Source: a bacterium SCSIO 12827 (lineage in GTDB: Bacteria > Pseudomonadota > Alphaproteobacteria > Rhodospirillales > Casp-alpha2). From it: a stretch of DNA of 64,000 bases. The position numbers were made by a program, and so were the translations under genes. Location: the NCBI GenBank assembly GCA_024397995.1, contig CP073746.1, positions 2,108,001 through 2,172,000 on the forward strand, written 5' to 3'. Shown piece after piece: positions 11,487 through 16,268 of this stretch. The notes beneath the pieces were generated by a model. That model saw only the letters and a program-made list of their open reading frames with translations. It did no database searches and was not told the origin of the DNA. The first letter of the stretch is position 1. Every line of letters begins with the position of its first letter.

Positions 11487-12920
11487 ATGATCGCCAGATT
11501 GATCGCCTTTCCGCAGAAAACCGTGGACAGCGACACCGGACGTGCCAACCGGCTTTCGGAAATTCTAAGCCTCTTGAATCGGGTCGCCGCCATCGCCGAC
11601 GATGCCCGCAAGGACGAGAAAACCGCTTTCGAAGAGGTCTTCGAGCAAGTTTGTTCCTTCACCGGCTGGCCCATCGGCCATCTTTACGTGCGCGATCCGG
11701 GCGATCACCTGCGCTACGTGTCACGTGACGTGTGGCGGCTGGAGCCGGACATGGACACCGCCGCCATCGCCGAATTCATGACCCTGAGCAAGAACACGGT
11801 GTTCACCCGAGGCACCGGCCTGGTCGGCATCATCGCCGAAACCGGCGAAGCCCGTGCGGTGGAGGATGTGACCGTCCTGCCCCAGTTCCTGCGCGCAGAG
11901 GCGGCACAGCGCAACGAAGTGCGCGGGTTCTTCGGCTTTCCCGTGATGCTGGACGGCGCCTGCGTGGCCGTGGCCGAGTTCTACGGCCGCCAGACGGGCC
12001 TGCTCGACGACACATCGCTTGAAATCATGACCTATGTATCGTCGCAACTGGCTCGCGTGTTCGAGCGTCAGGCCTTCGAAAAACGCAGGACGGCCCTGAT
12101 GGACCAGTTTGAAACCAGCGTGCAGAGCGCCGTGGGGCGGCTTGGTGCCGCCTCGGGTGAATTGACGGGTTCGGCCGGCGAACTGGGGCAACGCTGCGGG
12201 GCGACCGCCGACGCCTGCGCCAAGGTCGGAGCCGGGATCGCCGACATTTCTGCCGCCGCCGGATCCTTGAAATCCGCCATGGCCGCCCTCGACGACGCCG
12301 AACGCAACACGGAAAGCAAGACCTCGGCCGTAATCGGCACGGTCAACCAGTTGGCCGGTGAACTGCGCGATGCCGTGACTCAACTTGAGAGATCCAACCA
12401 GGCCGCCCAGGACATCGGCGAGATCACCAGAAACGTCAGCGAAATCGCGGGACAAGTCCGCATGCTGGGCCTCAACGCCACCATCGAGGCGGCACGCGCC
12501 GGCGAGATGGGCAAGGGATTCGCCATCGTCGCCAGCGAGATCAAGAACCTGGCGCAGCAGTCCGAAGCCGCCTCCGGATGCATCGCCGAGCAGATCTCCG
12601 GCTTGCAGGACACCGTACGCGCCAGCGCCGTCAACATGGCGAGCGTGGCCGGCAAGATGGAGGATCTGGTGCAGACTGTCCATGGCATGGCCCAGGTCCT
12701 GAGCGGCCAGAAGCAGGCTACGAGCACCATCGGCCGCCATGTCGCCGACTCTCAGGAGACAGTTGCGGGCATCACCGCAGACGTGGCGCTGATGGACGAG
12801 GCCATGGCGGTGTTATCGGAACTGTCCCGGGGACTCGGTCGCTTGGCGGCGGACCTGGAAGGCACCGCCCATGACGTATCCCACTCGGGCGAAGCCTTCA
12901 TGACCGCTATGCGGGGCTGA
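11487..12920 (+). CDS. Soluble GAF-domain methyl-accepting chemotaxis protein
   Basis: The protein of 477 residues has a GAF sensor domain (about 25-200) followed by a coiled-coil methyl-accepting signalling domain (about 210-470). The tip is conserved as EIAGQVRMLGLNATIEAARAGEMGKGFAIVA, here split around residues 320-350. No transmembrane helix or HAMP domain is present, so it is a cytoplasmic receptor sensing an internal ligand and signalling to CheA/CheW. I chose the ATG at 11487 because AAAGGA lies 9 bp before it; the frame extends to a TTG at 11469 without a ribosome site. No che genes are near. Confidence 0.88.
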   Translation: MIARLIAFPQKTVDSDTGRANRLSEILSLLNRVAAIADDARKDEKTAFEEVFEQVCSFTGWPIGHLYVRDPGDHLRYVSRDVWRLEPDMDTAAIAEFMTLSKNTVFTRGTGLVGIIAETGEARAVEDVTVLPQFLRAEAAQRNEVRGFFGFPVMLDGACVAVAEFYGRQTGLLDDTSLEIMTYVSSQLARVFERQAFEKRRTALMDQFETSVQSAVGRLGAASGELTGSAGELGQRCGATADACAKVGAGIADISAAAGSLKSAMAALDDAERNTESKTSAVIGTVNQLAGELRDAVTQLERSNQAAQDIGEITRNVSEIAGQVRMLGLNATIEAARAGEMGKGFAIVASEIKNLAQQSEAASGCIAEQISGLQDTVRASAVNMASVAGKMEDLVQTVHGMAQVLSGQKQATSTIGRHVADSQETVAGITADVALMDEAMAVLSELSRGLGRLAADLEGTAHDVSHSGEAFMTAMRG

Positions 12921-12941
12921 TTCGCCGCCGTATTGCCCTGC

Positions 12942-13340
12942 TTAGCGGTCCGGCAGGTTGATCGTCACCGTTGCCTTGCCGTAGCCATGCACCTTGTCAT
13001 GGGCCCGCACGATCACGTTTTTGATCCCTGAGGGCACCTTCACCCCGTCGGTCGAGCGCGTGAACGGTTGCTCGTCGACATGCGGATGATACAGAACCCG
13101 GCGATCCAGCAGAGTCCCGTCCGGCGCCAGAACCTCGAAATTGTCGGCGTAATGGTCCCAGCCCGTGTCGCCGTGGTGAACGGTCGCGGTCACCGTATAG
13201 GTGCCGTCACCGTTGGGTGACGCCTCTGCATGAACGACACGGGGCGCATCGGCCTGGGCGGCGCCACCAGCCAGCATCAGCGCCAGCATCAGCGACAGAA
13301 CCATGACGGCGGTGGGAAACGTTCGGGTCAGATGGGGCAT
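12942..13340 (-). CDS. Small exported protein of unknown function
   Basis: This 132-residue protein has a signal peptide (residues 1-31, ending AQA). The mature domain is beta-rich, with YTVTATVHHGDTGWDHYADNFEV followed later by a YHPHVDEQPFTRS segment containing two His and acidic residues. An Ig-like or metal-binding periplasmic fold is plausible but not demonstrated. It is divergent from the microprotein gene at 13506; the LexA box at 13450 lies in the shared upstream region, so SOS control of this gene too is possible. Confidence 0.7.
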   Translation of the reverse strand: MPHLTRTFPTAVMVLSLMLALMLAGGAAQADAPRVVHAEASPNGDGTYTVTATVHHGDTGWDHYADNFEVLAPDGTLLDRRVLYHPHVDEQPFTRSTDGVKVPSGIKNVIVRAHDKVHGYGKATVTINLPDR

Positions 13341-13449
13341 GTCGGAGCTTCCCTTTCAATTTCCTCTGGGAAAACCCCCGGAAGTCTTTGGATTTTAGGT
13401 CGGAAAAACGGCGGCAGCCAAGGGCATAACGAAAAAGTGTTGACTAAAT

Positions 13450-13464
13450 GTTCTTGTTATGTTC
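13450..13464 (+). promoter_or_regulatory. LexA operator (alphaproteobacterial SOS box)
   Basis: GTTCTTGTTATGTTC is an exact GTTC-N7-GTTC direct repeat, the established LexA box of Alphaproteobacteria. It lies just downstream of a -35-like TTGACT (13440-13445), so bound LexA would cover the core promoter. It is 41 bp upstream of the 26-codon ORF at 13506. Confidence 0.8.
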
Positions 13465-13505
13465 TTTTCTGGTCACACGATGATTCAACCCTGGGAGTGA
13501 CCCCG

Positions 13506-13586
13506 ATGACCATTTCGCGCCTTCATGAACTGTTCGCCCTCGCCGTCATGTTCACCGCCGGCTATGCCTGCATGGTGGTCGGCTAA
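13506..13586 (+). CDS. LexA-boxed 26-residue single-pass membrane microprotein (SidA-like in layout)
   Basis: The peptide is 26 residues: a short polar head MTISRLHE, then an 18-residue hydrophobic stretch (LFALAVMF through CMVVG) that can span the membrane once. The ATG follows GGGAG at 13493-13497, and a perfect LexA box lies upstream. In Caulobacter the 29-residue SOS-induced SidA peptide is of this size and topology and blocks division through FtsW. I see no reliable sequence similarity to SidA, so function is inferred from size, topology and LexA control. The gene is convergent with the thioesterase gene. Confidence 0.65.
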   Translation: MTISRLHELFALAVMFTAGYACMVVG

Positions 13587-13613
13587 GGCCGTTGCCGCCG
13601 CGCCTTCGTCGCC

Positions 13614-14033
13614 TCAGGGCTTGAGAACCGGACGCTTCTTCCCGTTCTCGTCCAAGGCGACGAAGGTGAAGATTCCTTCCGTCACCCTGACCCGCCGGTC
13701 ACGCGCCCGCTGACGCAGGGCCCAGGCTTCGATCCGCAGGGCGATTGAGGTATTACCGACGCGCACGACTTCGGCGTAACAGCACAGCACATCTCCGACG
13801 TTGACCGGTTTGTGGAAAATGAATCCGTCAACCGCCACGGTGGCGACCCGGCCGCCGGCGTGTTGGGCGGCGACAATGCCTCCGGCGACGTCCATTTGCG
13901 CCATCACCCAGCCGCCGAAGATGTCGCCGGACGGATTGGTGTCGGCGGGCATGGCCAGGGTCCGAATGGCCAATTCGCCCCGCGGCTGATCGTCGTGGGA
14001 AGCGGCCGAATCGGCGGAATTCTGGGTCGTCAT
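13614..14033 (-). CDS. Acyl-CoA thioesterase, YciA-type hotdog protein
   Basis: The 139-residue single hotdog domain has the YciA/BACH landmark ADTNPSGDIFGGWVMAQMDVAGG, containing the catalytic Asp in the TNPSGDIFGG region, and VDGFIFHKPVNVGDV. Such enzymes hydrolyse short to medium acyl-CoAs in the cytosol. I chose the ATG at 14033, which has AGGA upstream; a GTG at 14072 would add 13 residues that are not part of the family. It is divergent from parE. Confidence 0.88.
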   Translation of the reverse strand: MTTQNSADSAASHDDQPRGELAIRTLAMPADTNPSGDIFGGWVMAQMDVAGGIVAAQHAGGRVATVAVDGFIFHKPVNVGDVLCCYAEVVRVGNTSIALRIEAWALRQRARDRRVRVTEGIFTFVALDENGKKRPVLKP

Positions 14034-14210
14034 CACGAAATTATCCTGTTTCTGCAATAGGGAATTCAGCACAATATATGGTAATTCATTGCACCCCCCC
14101 TACCCCATCGTGGTATAGCTTGGGACAGGCTGAGGCCAGCGCAAGGCCATTCGGCCGGAACACGAAAACTAACGAACAAGCGCCCCACAAGACATGGGGC
14201 CGGATAGCCA

Positions 14211-16268
14211 ATGAGCGACCTATTTCAACACGCCCAAGACAAAAAGCAACCGGATAAGGCGCCGCCGAAAGCCGCCATGGCAAAACCCGCCAAGGCTGCC
14301 CAGCCCTCGGGCGACGGCGAGTATACCGCCAAGGACATCGAGGTTCTGGAAGGCCTGGAGCCCGTCCGACGCCGCCCCGGCATGTACATCGGCGGCACGG
14401 ATGAACGCGCCCTGCACCACTTGGCCGCGGAAATCATCGACAACTCCATGGACGAGGCCGTGGCCGGCCATGCGGGCCGCATCGAAGTCGCCCTGGGCGA
14501 GGACGGCGCGCTGACTGTGCGCGACAACGGACGCGGTATTCCCATCGACCCGCACCCCAAGTTCAAGGACAAATCGGCGCTTGAGGTCATCATGACCACG
14601 CTGCATTCCGGCGGCAAATTCTCGGGCAAGAACTACGAAACCTCGGGCGGCCTGCACGGTGTCGGGCTTTCCGTGGTCAACGCCCTGTCGTCGGAACTGG
14701 TCGTCGAGGTCGCCCGCGACAAGAAATTGTGGCGCCAGACCTATTCGCAGGGCAATCCGACCTCGAAGCTGGAGGACGCGGGTACGGTCAACAACCGGCG
14801 CGGCACCACGGTGACGTTCTCCCCCGATCCTGAGATCTTCGGCGCGCGCTGCGCCTTCAAGCCGCAGGCGCTGTACCGCATGGCGCGGTCCAAGGCCTAT
14901 CTGTTCAAGGGCGTCGAAATCCGCTGGTCCTGTGATCCCAAGCTGTTGAAGGCCGACGATCCGACCCCGGCGGAAGCCACCTTCCACTTCCCGGGCGGGC
15001 TCGGCGACTACCTGCAGGCGTCCCTGGAGGCCCGCAAATGCCTGACCGATCAGCCCTTCGTCGGCGAGGGTAAGCTGGTCGGCGGCACCGGCCGCGCCGA
15101 ATGGGCCATCGCCTGGCCGCTGGATGAGGAAGGATTCTGTTCGTCCTACTGCAACACCATTCCGACGGCCCAGGGCGGCACCCATGAAACGGGCCTGAAA
15201 TCGGCCCTGTCGCGGGGGCTGCGCGCCTATGGCGAGTTGGTCAAGAACAAGGAAGCCGCCAAGGTCCAGGCCGACGATATCACCGGCGGGGCCGCGATCA
15301 TGCTGTCCGTGTTCATCGGCGATCCGCAGTTCCAGGGACAGACCAAGGACAAGCTGGCGACGGCCGAGGCCCACCGCCTGGTCGAAACCGCGGTGCGCGA
15401 CCATTTCGACCACTGGCTGTCCGGTCATCCGGCCCAGGCCAACGCCCTTCTGGAGCATGCCATCGAGCGCGCGGAAATGCGCCTCAAGCGCCGCGCCGCC
15501 AAGGAGACCAAACGTCAGTCGGCGACCCGCCGCGTGCGCTTGCCGGGCAAACTGTCCGACTGCACGCGCAATACGTCCCAAGGTACGGAAATCTTCCTGG
15601 TCGAGGGCGACAGCGCCGGCGGCTCCGCCAAGCAGGCGCGCCTGCGCGAGACCCAGGCCGTGCTGCCCCTGCGCGGCAAGATCCTCAACGTCGCCAGCGC
15701 CACCGCCGACAAGATGCGCGCCAATCAGGAACTGTCCGACCTGATGGAAGCCTTGGGCTGCGGCACCGGCGATCAATTCATGGAAGACGACCTGCGCTAC
15801 GAGAAAGTCATCATCATGACCGACGCCGACGTCGACGGCGCCCATATCGCGTCGCTGCTCATGACCTTCTTCTTCCAGGAAATGCCCAAGCTGGTGGAAT
15901 CCGGCCACCTCTATCTCGCCCTGCCGCCGCTCTACCGGCTCAGCCAAGGCGGCAAGTCGGCCTATGCCCGCGACGACGCGCATAAGGACGAATTGATGGA
16001 GACCGTGTTCAAGGGCCGCGGCAAGGTCGACGTCAGCCGCTTCAAGGGCCTGGGCGAAATGCCGCCGTCCCAGTTGAAGGAAACCACCATGGACCCGACC
16101 AAGCGCATTCTGCTGCGCGTGACCCTGCCCACGGGCGACGGGCCCGAGATCAAGACCGAAGCCAAAAAGACGGCGAAACTGGTGGAAAGCCTGATGGGAC
16201 GGAAACCGGAACTGCGCTTCGCCTATATCCAGGAACACGCCAAGTTCGTGCAGGACATCGACATCTAG
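14211..16268 (+). CDS. parE: DNA topoisomerase IV subunit B (ParE)
   Basis: The protein of 685 residues has the GHKL ATPase domain (NSMDEAVAGHAG near residue 82, DNGRGIP near residue 105, GGLHGVGLSVVNAL near residue 148) and the TOPRIM domain (EGDSAGGSAKQ near residue 465, DADVDGAHI near residue 538). Absence of the long GyrB insertions and the sequence RETQAVLPLRGKILNV point to ParE rather than GyrB. With ParC it forms the tetramer that decatenates daughter chromosomes. An alanine- and lysine-rich N-terminal extension of about 35 residues precedes the ATPase. parC is not in this window. Confidence 0.95.
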   Translation: MSDLFQHAQDKKQPDKAPPKAAMAKPAKAAQPSGDGEYTAKDIEVLEGLEPVRRRPGMYIGGTDERALHHLAAEIIDNSMDEAVAGHAGRIEVALGEDGALTVRDNGRGIPIDPHPKFKDKSALEVIMTTLHSGGKFSGKNYETSGGLHGVGLSVVNALSSELVVEVARDKKLWRQTYSQGNPTSKLEDAGTVNNRRGTTVTFSPDPEIFGARCAFKPQALYRMARSKAYLFKGVEIRWSCDPKLLKADDPTPAEATFHFPGGLGDYLQASLEARKCLTDQPFVGEGKLVGGTGRAEWAIAWPLDEEGFCSSYCNTIPTAQGGTHETGLKSALSRGLRAYGELVKNKEAAKVQADDITGGAAIMLSVFIGDPQFQGQTKDKLATAEAHRLVETAVRDHFDHWLSGHPAQANALLEHAIERAEMRLKRRAAKETKRQSATRRVRLPGKLSDCTRNTSQGTEIFLVEGDSAGGSAKQARLRETQAVLPLRGKILNVASATADKMRANQELSDLMEALGCGTGDQFMEDDLRYEKVIIMTDADVDGAHIASLLMTFFFQEMPKLVESGHLYLALPPLYRLSQGGKSAYARDDAHKDELMETVFKGRGKVDVSRFKGLGEMPPSQLKETTMDPTKRILLRVTLPTGDGPEIKTEAKKTAKLVESLMGRKPELRFAYIQEHAKFVQDIDI

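What the first reader, a model, noticed from the sequence alone, without database searches (positions are those of the whole stretch)
13440..13586. LexA-controlled 26-residue membrane microprotein, a candidate SOS cell-division inhibitor
A perfect GTTC-N7-GTTC box sits at 13450-13464, right after a -35-like TTGACT and 41 bp before a 26-codon ORF with a GGGAG ribosome site. The peptide is almost all one transmembrane helix. Caulobacter SidA (29 residues, SOS-induced, inhibits division at FtsW) has the same size, topology and regulation. No sequence similarity is claimed; the ORF is too short for most gene finders and is probably missed in databases. The divergent exported-protein gene at 12942-13340 might share the operator.
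Basis: partly seen in the sequence, partly recalled or inferred. Interest (0 to 1): 0.75.

Follow-up and report, generated by a model that had tools for sequence, protein, structure and literature searches.

The report
SOS-controlled membrane microprotein, probably SidA-like
A 26-residue membrane peptide gene with a DNA-damage (LexA) control site is real, belongs to an unnamed family kept in many genomes of one bacterial order, and most likely helps stop cell division while DNA is repaired, which still has to be tested in cells.

Summary
Window 13450-13464 is a perfect LexA box inside a promoter; 13506-13586 encodes a 26-residue single-helix peptide. The box alone proves nothing (2.4 expected by chance in the window), but box plus peptide is conserved: 8 of 8 genomes of the genus, 42 of 48 of the family, 121 of 317 of the order (83 perfect box, 38 one mismatch). 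Perfect boxes lie within 150 nt upstream of 83 of 130 short-ORF matches and downstream of 0; one-mismatch background is 17 of 130. About two thirds of members share one chromosomal place (thioesterase gene in 79, parE in 80 of 121 loci). The 15-base box equals LexA boxes of two Caulobacter SOS genes. Pfam and NCBIfam have no match.

Function is inferred. Best reading: an SOS cell-division brake of the SidA kind. Caulobacteraceae-like genomes carry a 29-aa LexA-box ORF just before dnaE, where published locus tags put sidA; its profile resembles this family weakly (0-5 of 300 full shuffles, 5-15 of 300 stricter shuffles, reach the score). Homology to SidA is suggestive, not proven. A TisB/DinQ-type membrane toxin is the main rival. 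The divergent exported gene probably does not share the operator.

The parts
13440..13445 (+). -35-like hexamer TTGACT
   Evidence: In members with a perfect forward box, a 5-of-6 match to TTGACA lies within 20 nt 5' of the box in 54 of 80, against 8 of 79 at a control position 200 nt further up.
13450..13464 (+). LexA box GTTCTTGTTATGTTC, inside the promoter
   Evidence: Same 15-mer as the LexA boxes of Caulobacter ccna_01391 and ccna_02355 (PMC12700426, passage). A GTTC-N7-GTTC box in 8 of 8 genus members.
13463..13468 (+). possible -10 (TCTTTT) at 17-nt spacing, overlapping the end of the box; weak, inferred
   Evidence: Read; the consensus scan did not report it.
13493..13497 (+). ribosome-binding site GGGAG, 8 nt before the ATG
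   Evidence: GGAG is kept in genus relatives.
13506..13586 (+). 26-codon ORF of the SOS membrane microprotein MTISRLHELFALAVMFTAGYACMVVG
   Evidence: best mean hydropathy 2.17 over 17 and 1.74 over 19 residues.
13614..14072 (-). convergent hotdog (4HBT) thioesterase gene, conserved neighbour (not part of the SOS unit)
   Evidence: 4HBT E=2.3e-19; found in 79 of 121 member loci.
14211..16268 (+). parE, topoisomerase IV subunit B, conserved neighbour
   Evidence: TIGR01055 over its cut-off; found in 80 of 121 member loci.
12942..13340 (-). divergent exported-protein gene, conserved neighbour, no Pfam match
   Evidence: (45 of 121 loci).
13392..13421 (-). promoter-like site for the divergent exported gene, separate from the LexA box
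   Evidence: 1 found in the region, mean 0.1 in shuffles.

Best explanation
A monocistronic SOS gene. Shown by sequence: a LexA-type box sits in the promoter between a -35 hexamer and the reading frame, and the product is a conserved 26-residue peptide that is almost all one hydrophobic helix with a short charged N-terminal tip. Inferred: LexA bound at 13450-13464 keeps the promoter shut; DNA damage makes RecA trigger LexA self-cleavage; the peptide is made and inserts in the inner membrane, N-terminus in; conserved residues of its helix (consensus F-x-[KR]-[ED]-[FL]-x-A-L-x-x-L-F-x-A-G-Y-x-W) dock on a membrane protein of the divisome, most likely FtsW or its FtsI/FtsN partners, and hold back septum synthesis until repair is done, as Caulobacter SidA does.
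For: Order-wide pairing of box and peptide. A box-blind search with the single 26-mer gave 19 matches: 14 short-ORF matches, all 14 with a perfect box within 150 nt upstream, and 5 in other frames or long ORFs, none with one. Purifying selection. The identical box belongs to two LexA-controlled Caulobacter genes (PMC12700426, passage). In the own genome lexA has a box upstream, and recA, a umuD-type gene and another S24 peptidase gene have one near their starts. Strong conservation over 105 distinct peptides: E/D at position 8 in 104, A11 in 88, L12 in 81, F16 in 75 (positions 8 and 20 were anchors). SidA is a 29-aa SOS inner-membrane protein acting on FtsW (PMC4211646 section 5). 29-aa LexA-box ORFs lie just before dnaE in Caulobacteraceae-like genomes; sidA is CCNA_02004 (PMC11034885), dnaE is CC1926 (PMC1839093), and recN is CC1983 and ccna_02062, which puts CC1926 at about CCNA_02003-02005. 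Profile-profile scores of the two dnaE-located ORFs against A3, A4, A5 are 18.5, 14.8, 18.1; 0, 5 and 0 of 300 column shuffles reach them.
Against: No expression, LexA-binding or phenotype data. Similarity to the SidA-like ORFs weakens under stricter controls: 9, 15 and 5 of 300 shuffles within segments for A3, A4, A5; 23 and 33 of 599 membrane-helix decoys score as high as the two dnaE-located ORFs (the decoys come partly from loci fetched as profile hits). A fourth Caulobacteraceae-like ORF at the same place (G736) shows no similarity. The helix-face signal is marginal: 740 of 20000 shuffles, 1834 of 20000 without the two anchored columns. The divisome target is by analogy. In 196 of 317 genomes of the order no peptide with a box was found among the matches read. 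9 of 130 short-ORF matches have no box, among them strong ones (G048, G050), and some of the 38 one-mismatch boxes may be chance (background 17 of 130).
Confidence: 0.6

Rival explanations
1. An SOS-induced membrane-active peptide of the TisB/DinQ kind: it lowers membrane potential and ATP and slows growth, with no specific protein partner.
For: E. coli DinQ is a LexA-controlled 27-aa single-helix inner-membrane peptide that depolarises the membrane (PMC3567139 passages), so size, place and regulation fit as well.
Against: DinQ and TisB are held in check by antisense RNAs; here only 41 nt separate box and ATG and no RNA family reaches its gathering score. The conservation of E/D8, A11, L12 and Y20 over 105 distinct peptides is more than a depolarising helix seems to need (inference).
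Confidence: 0.22
2. A LexA-controlled small regulator of another membrane complex (transporter, respiratory complex or protease such as FtsH), not of division.
For: Many known bacterial microproteins of this size bind larger membrane complexes (general knowledge, no call); the conservation pattern fits any single helix partner.
Against: The conserved neighbours are convergent or divergent, so no co-transcribed partner gene is evident. The resemblance to the probable sidA ORFs points to the divisome.
Confidence: 0.15
3. Chance: a stray box beside a spurious short ORF.
For: A perfect box is expected 2.4 times in the window by chance, and short ORFs are common.
Against: 121 of 317 genomes keep box (0-1 mismatch) plus peptide; 83 of 130 upstream against 0 of 130 downstream for the perfect box; conserved synteny; pS well above pN in most genus pairs.
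Confidence: 0.01

Closest known systems
SidA of Caulobacter crescentus (CCNA_02004)
   Same: 29 against 26-36 residues, single membrane helix with almost nothing else, SOS regulation; the probable sidA ORFs have LexA boxes and share R-[E/D]-x-x-A-L and aromatic-x-W with the family.
   Different: Two residues fewer between the A-L and aromatic-x-W blocks; Phe in place of the Tyr; lies before dnaE instead of between exported gene, thioesterase gene and parE; sequence similarity is weak; FtsW target untested here.
DinQ and TisB of E. coli
   Same: LexA-controlled single-helix inner-membrane peptides of similar length (DinQ 27 aa; the TisB length is recalled).
   Different: Type I toxins with antisense RNA; here a short leader, no RNA found, and a strongly conserved helix motif.
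DidA of Caulobacter; YneA (Bacillus), SosA (Staphylococcus)
   Same: Small membrane division inhibitors induced by DNA damage; DidA acts on FtsN, YneA on FtsW.
   Different: DidA has 71 residues with cytoplasmic and periplasmic parts and is not SOS-dependent; YneA has a LysM domain.

Membership tests
SOS (LexA) regulon | LexA box of the organism's own type at the promoter | tested here: met
   Own lexA carries GAACCAAAGTAGAAC upstream, recA a GTTC-N7-GTTC box 122 nt from its start; box at 13450-13464 between -35 and ORF; 83 of 317 genomes with a perfect, 38 with a one-mismatch box at the gene.
SOS (LexA) regulon | RecA/LexA-dependent induction by DNA damage | not testable with these tools
   No expression data. 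The same 15-mer sits at two induced Caulobacter promoters (PMC12700426, passage).
SidA | about 29 residues, one membrane helix | tested here: met
   26 residues; aligned family members 24-36; hydropathy peak.
SidA | sequence homology to SidA | tested here: inconclusive
Against two probable sidA ORFs: hhalign 18.5 (A3), 14.8 (A4), 18.1 (A5); 0, 5, 0 of 300 full shuffles and 9, 15, 5 of 300 segment shuffles as good; 23 and 33 of 599 decoys as good for the HMM; one of four ORFs dissimilar.
SidA | same gene neighbourhood (before dnaE) | tested here: not met
   No dnaE match in any of 121 member loci and 4 loci of f81, all of about 3 kb or less.
SidA | inhibits division through FtsW | not testable with these tools
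   Needs cells.
Type I toxin (TisB/DinQ) | antisense RNA | tested here: inconclusive
   41 nt between box and ATG; no Rfam match reaches its gathering score in 12900-14300. A lineage-specific antisense RNA is not excluded.
Named Pfam or NCBIfam family | model match | tested here: not met
   6 of 6 representative peptides have no match up to E=10 in either library; profile A3 has none in PDB sequences.

The most novel reading that the evidence does not exclude
One ancient SidA superfamily serves as the SOS division checkpoint across much of the Alphaproteobacteria: this family in its order, its tailed form in f19 and f81, and SidA in Caulobacteraceae descend from one LexA-controlled helix peptide that has been overlooked because it is only about 26-36 residues long.
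Probability: 0.42. Interest if true: 0.82.

Novelty: new variant of a known kind. Interest (0 to 1): 0.64.

Why it matters
SidA is described from Caulobacter, and I know of no such SOS division inhibitor in the Rhodospirillales-type bacteria treated here (own knowledge; searches listed none). A positionally conserved LexA-box microprotein is a ready candidate that can be tested in a cultured species such as Magnetovibrio blakemorei MV-1. More than a hundred natural variants also give a sequence-function map of how a bare helix might block septum synthesis.

Tried and rejected
Box alone as evidence: rejected, not above chance. Peptide family in named libraries: none. Profile A3 over 385 genomes of the class: 45 genomes other than the window's own had a match at E<=0.3; by the listing each covers only part of the profile; I read none of these loci. 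The tailed profile A4 over the same 385 had matches in 93 genomes at E<=0.5; I read 16 loci, and 4 of them, all of family f81, are short ORFs with LexA boxes; other members outside the order may be among the unread ones. A5 over 60 genomes of the Caulobacteraceae-like family f93: 38 matches at E<=10, of which I read 4 in short frames; one (G700) was a 29-aa ORF with near-boxes. Function by neighbourhood with parE: not pursued, the gene between is convergent, none of the f19 loci and none of 4 f81 loci shows parE, thioesterase or exported gene. Antisense RNA: nothing found. Helix-face test: marginal. That f93 is Caulobacteraceae is inferred from the holdfast model NF037934, which among 14 control genomes rings only in Caulobacter vibrioides but also rings in four other families of the sample, and from the 29-aa ORF before dnaE. 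Own-genome boxes: the list was cut; of the sites looked at many lie inside ORFs, and of 18 proteins beside boxes scanned in Pfam several are not typical SOS genes (GntR/FCD regulator, glyoxalase, amidohydrolase, PRA isomerase, GTP cyclohydrolase, threonine synthase).

Papers: passages only of PMC12700426, PMC13384398, PMC3567139, PMC11034885, PMC13396833, PMC1839093; PMC4211646 passages and section 5 (33, 78, 92); all others only as search listings. None of the listings showed such a family in Rhodospirillales; most subscription papers are not in that library.

Rows left out of the counts: of 150 matches listed I read 142; the 8 others (E 0.13-0.27, frames of 57-667 aa) were not fetched, and the listing was itself cut. 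Identical peptides were counted once, and one member without the anchor Tyr was left out there; columns 8 and 20 were used as anchors, so their conservation is partly built in. The seeds of A3 were picked by eye from short-ORF hits after seeing the boxes, though several without a perfect box were included; the box-blind test is.

Full report
What is there. The sequence at 13440-13586 is as described: TTGACT, four bases, GTTCTTGTTATGTTC, 41 nt with GGGAG, then ATG and 26 codons. Caveats first. A GTTC-N7-GTTC site is expected 2.4 times in a window of this make-up and occurs once; genome-wide there are 116 against 81 for the reversed pattern. The ORF lies in a longer open frame (118 aa), so the frame alone says little, and a consensus promoter scan does not report this promoter.

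Conservation. A search with the 26-mer alone in 61 genomes, blind to the box, gave matches in 16; all 8 genomes of the genus, the window's own included, have it. Of its 19 listed matches, the 14 in short ORFs of the family type all have a perfect GTTC-N7-GTTC box within 150 nt upstream and the 5 others (long ORFs or broken frames) have none; no match has one within 150 nt downstream. In the genus the reading frame is under purifying selection: window against G005, 9 of 19 synonymous and 2 of 56 nonsynonymous sites differ; against G003, 11.5 of 19.2 and 14.5 of 55.8. G000 and G004 are identical, and some close pairs have too few changes to tell.

Order-wide family. Profiles built from these peptides were searched in 48 genomes of the family and 317 of the order. 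Of 150 listed matches to the wider profile A3 (E<=0.3; list cut) I read 142. 130 are in frames that end within 20 codons of the match: 83 have a perfect box within 150 nt upstream, 121 a box with at most one mismatch; downstream the same counts are 0 and 17, and the reversed motif upstream gives 0. The 12 in longer frames give 0 and 1. In all, 121 genomes keep peptide plus box, 83 with a perfect and 38 with a one-mismatch box: 42 of 48 in the window's family, and members in 15 families, 10 of them with a perfect box. A few of the 38 may be chance. 9 short-ORF matches have no box. In family f20, 14 of the 20 members without a perfect box carry GTTGCTATTTTGTTC, and most others a close variant. 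A -35 element 5' of the box is kept too: 54 of 80 against 8 of 79 at a control position, so the operator lies in the promoter.

Same place. The thioesterase gene is found in 79 and parE in 80 of 121 loci, the exported gene in 45, in the layout exported(-), microgene(+), thioesterase(-), parE(+) where they occur together; flanks were 1.2-1.5 kb and many contigs end early, so these are lower bounds (parE named by TIGR01055). This makes these members one vertically inherited locus. Members in f19 and f81 have a C-terminal extension (for example ...LYLWSLVALALQS), mostly paired opposed LexA boxes, and none of those neighbours in the stretches read.

LexA. Within 400 nt upstream of the lexA match, 26 of 30 loci have a GTTC-N7-GTTC box in either orientation, the own genome among them; of the 4 without, three are short contigs that my script read out of register. 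In the own genome, boxes lie near the starts of recA, of a umuD-type gene (NF007621), of an S24 peptidase gene, a radical SAM gene and a DUF5131 gene; other boxes sit near genes with no known SOS role or inside ORFs. In Caulobacter the identical 15-mer is the LexA box of two early SOS genes (PMC12700426, passage).

The peptide. Over 105 distinct members the consensus is F-x-[KR]-[ED]-[FL]-x-A-L-x-x-L-F-x-A-G-Y-x-W-[LM]-[VL]-[VI] (columns 8 and 20 were anchors; E/D in 104, A11 in 88, L12 in 81, F16 in 75, G19 in 63). It is a single hydrophobic helix with almost nothing after it. No Pfam, NCBIfam or PDB match. Outside the order, among 385 genomes of the class, the only members I confirmed are 4 in family f81; most weak matches there were not read.

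Is it SidA? SidA is a 29-aa SOS-induced inner-membrane protein acting on FtsW (PMC4211646 section 5). Its sequence was not obtainable. I therefore looked in a family that a holdfast model marks as Caulobacteraceae-like. A profile search of 60 such genomes gave one 29-aa ORF among the 4 matches read, with two one-mismatch boxes, just before dnaE. Fetching the dnaE start in three more genomes (DnaE confirmed for L390) showed 29-aa ORFs before dnaE in two, each with a perfect box GAACAAACCCGGAAC, and a 28-aa ORF with one-mismatch boxes in the third. sidA is CCNA_02004; dnaE is CC1926; recN is CC1983 and ccna_02062, an offset of 79, which places dnaE next to sidA. So these ORFs are very probably sidA orthologues (inference). 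Profile-profile comparison aligns A-R-I-A-R-E-T-L-A-L with the family's N-terminal half and F-V-W-M with its aromatic-x-W, with a two-residue gap. With all three ORFs, 0 of 400 column shuffles reach the score for A3, A4 and A5. Without the ORF that the profile itself had found: 0, 5, 0 of 300 full shuffles and 9, 15, 5 of 300 shuffles within segments; single-sequence scores are matched by 23 and 33 of 599 membrane-helix decoys, a pool partly made of earlier profile hits. The fourth ORF shows no similarity. I read this as suggestive of common descent, not as proof.

Mechanism. Shown: LexA-type operator in the promoter, short distance from box to ATG, conserved helix peptide, neighbours on the other strand on both sides. 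Inferred: induction by damage, membrane insertion, partner in the divisome, arrest of septation. TisB/DinQ-like depolarisation is the main alternative; the short leader, absence of a recognisable RNA and conservation of Y20 and E/D8 argue against it but do not exclude it.

Organism. The combined box-plus-peptide pattern found 37 stretches in genome contigs; by reading, 23 are members (21 in records labelled Rhodospirillales, Rhodospirillaceae, Magnetovibrio or Alphaproteobacteria, 2 labelled only Proteobacteria; one is cultured, Magnetovibrio blakemorei MV-1), and 14 are chance matches, 2 of them in other Alphaproteobacteria and 12 in unrelated bacteria.

Noticed in passing
L390:1352, L391:1351, L368:1498, L392:1366: 28-29-aa ORFs with perfect or one-mismatch LexA boxes directly upstream of dnaE in four Caulobacteraceae-like genomes; probably sidA orthologues, with the one in L392 (G736) strongly diverged.
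   Followed up: partly
L103-L108, L111, L123 and other f20, f3, f6, f11 loci: In these families the microgene's box is mostly GTTGCTATTTTGTTC or a close variant, one mismatch from the LexA consensus with a conserved spacer, while lexA itself in G038 (f3) and G046 (f11) keeps a canonical box. Why is unexplained.
   Followed up: no
L266, L270, L272-L274, L278, L298-L301: Members of f19 and f81 carry forward and reverse LexA boxes 27-30 bp apart in the promoter region, and a C-terminal extension of the peptide.
   Followed up: partly
window 12942-13340: Conserved exported protein of 132 aa with no Pfam match, divergent from the microgene and seen beside it in 45 of 121 loci.
   Followed up: partly
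L328:1516-1530 and L002:1501-1515 (own genome 2106815 and 104595): LexA-type boxes near the start of a umuD-type gene (about 1.2 kb before the window starts) and of another S24 peptidase gene.
   Followed up: partly
L036, L037 upstream of the microgene: Two same-genus genomes have a second perfect box, GTTCACACAATGTTC, 21 bp downstream of the first.
   Followed up: no
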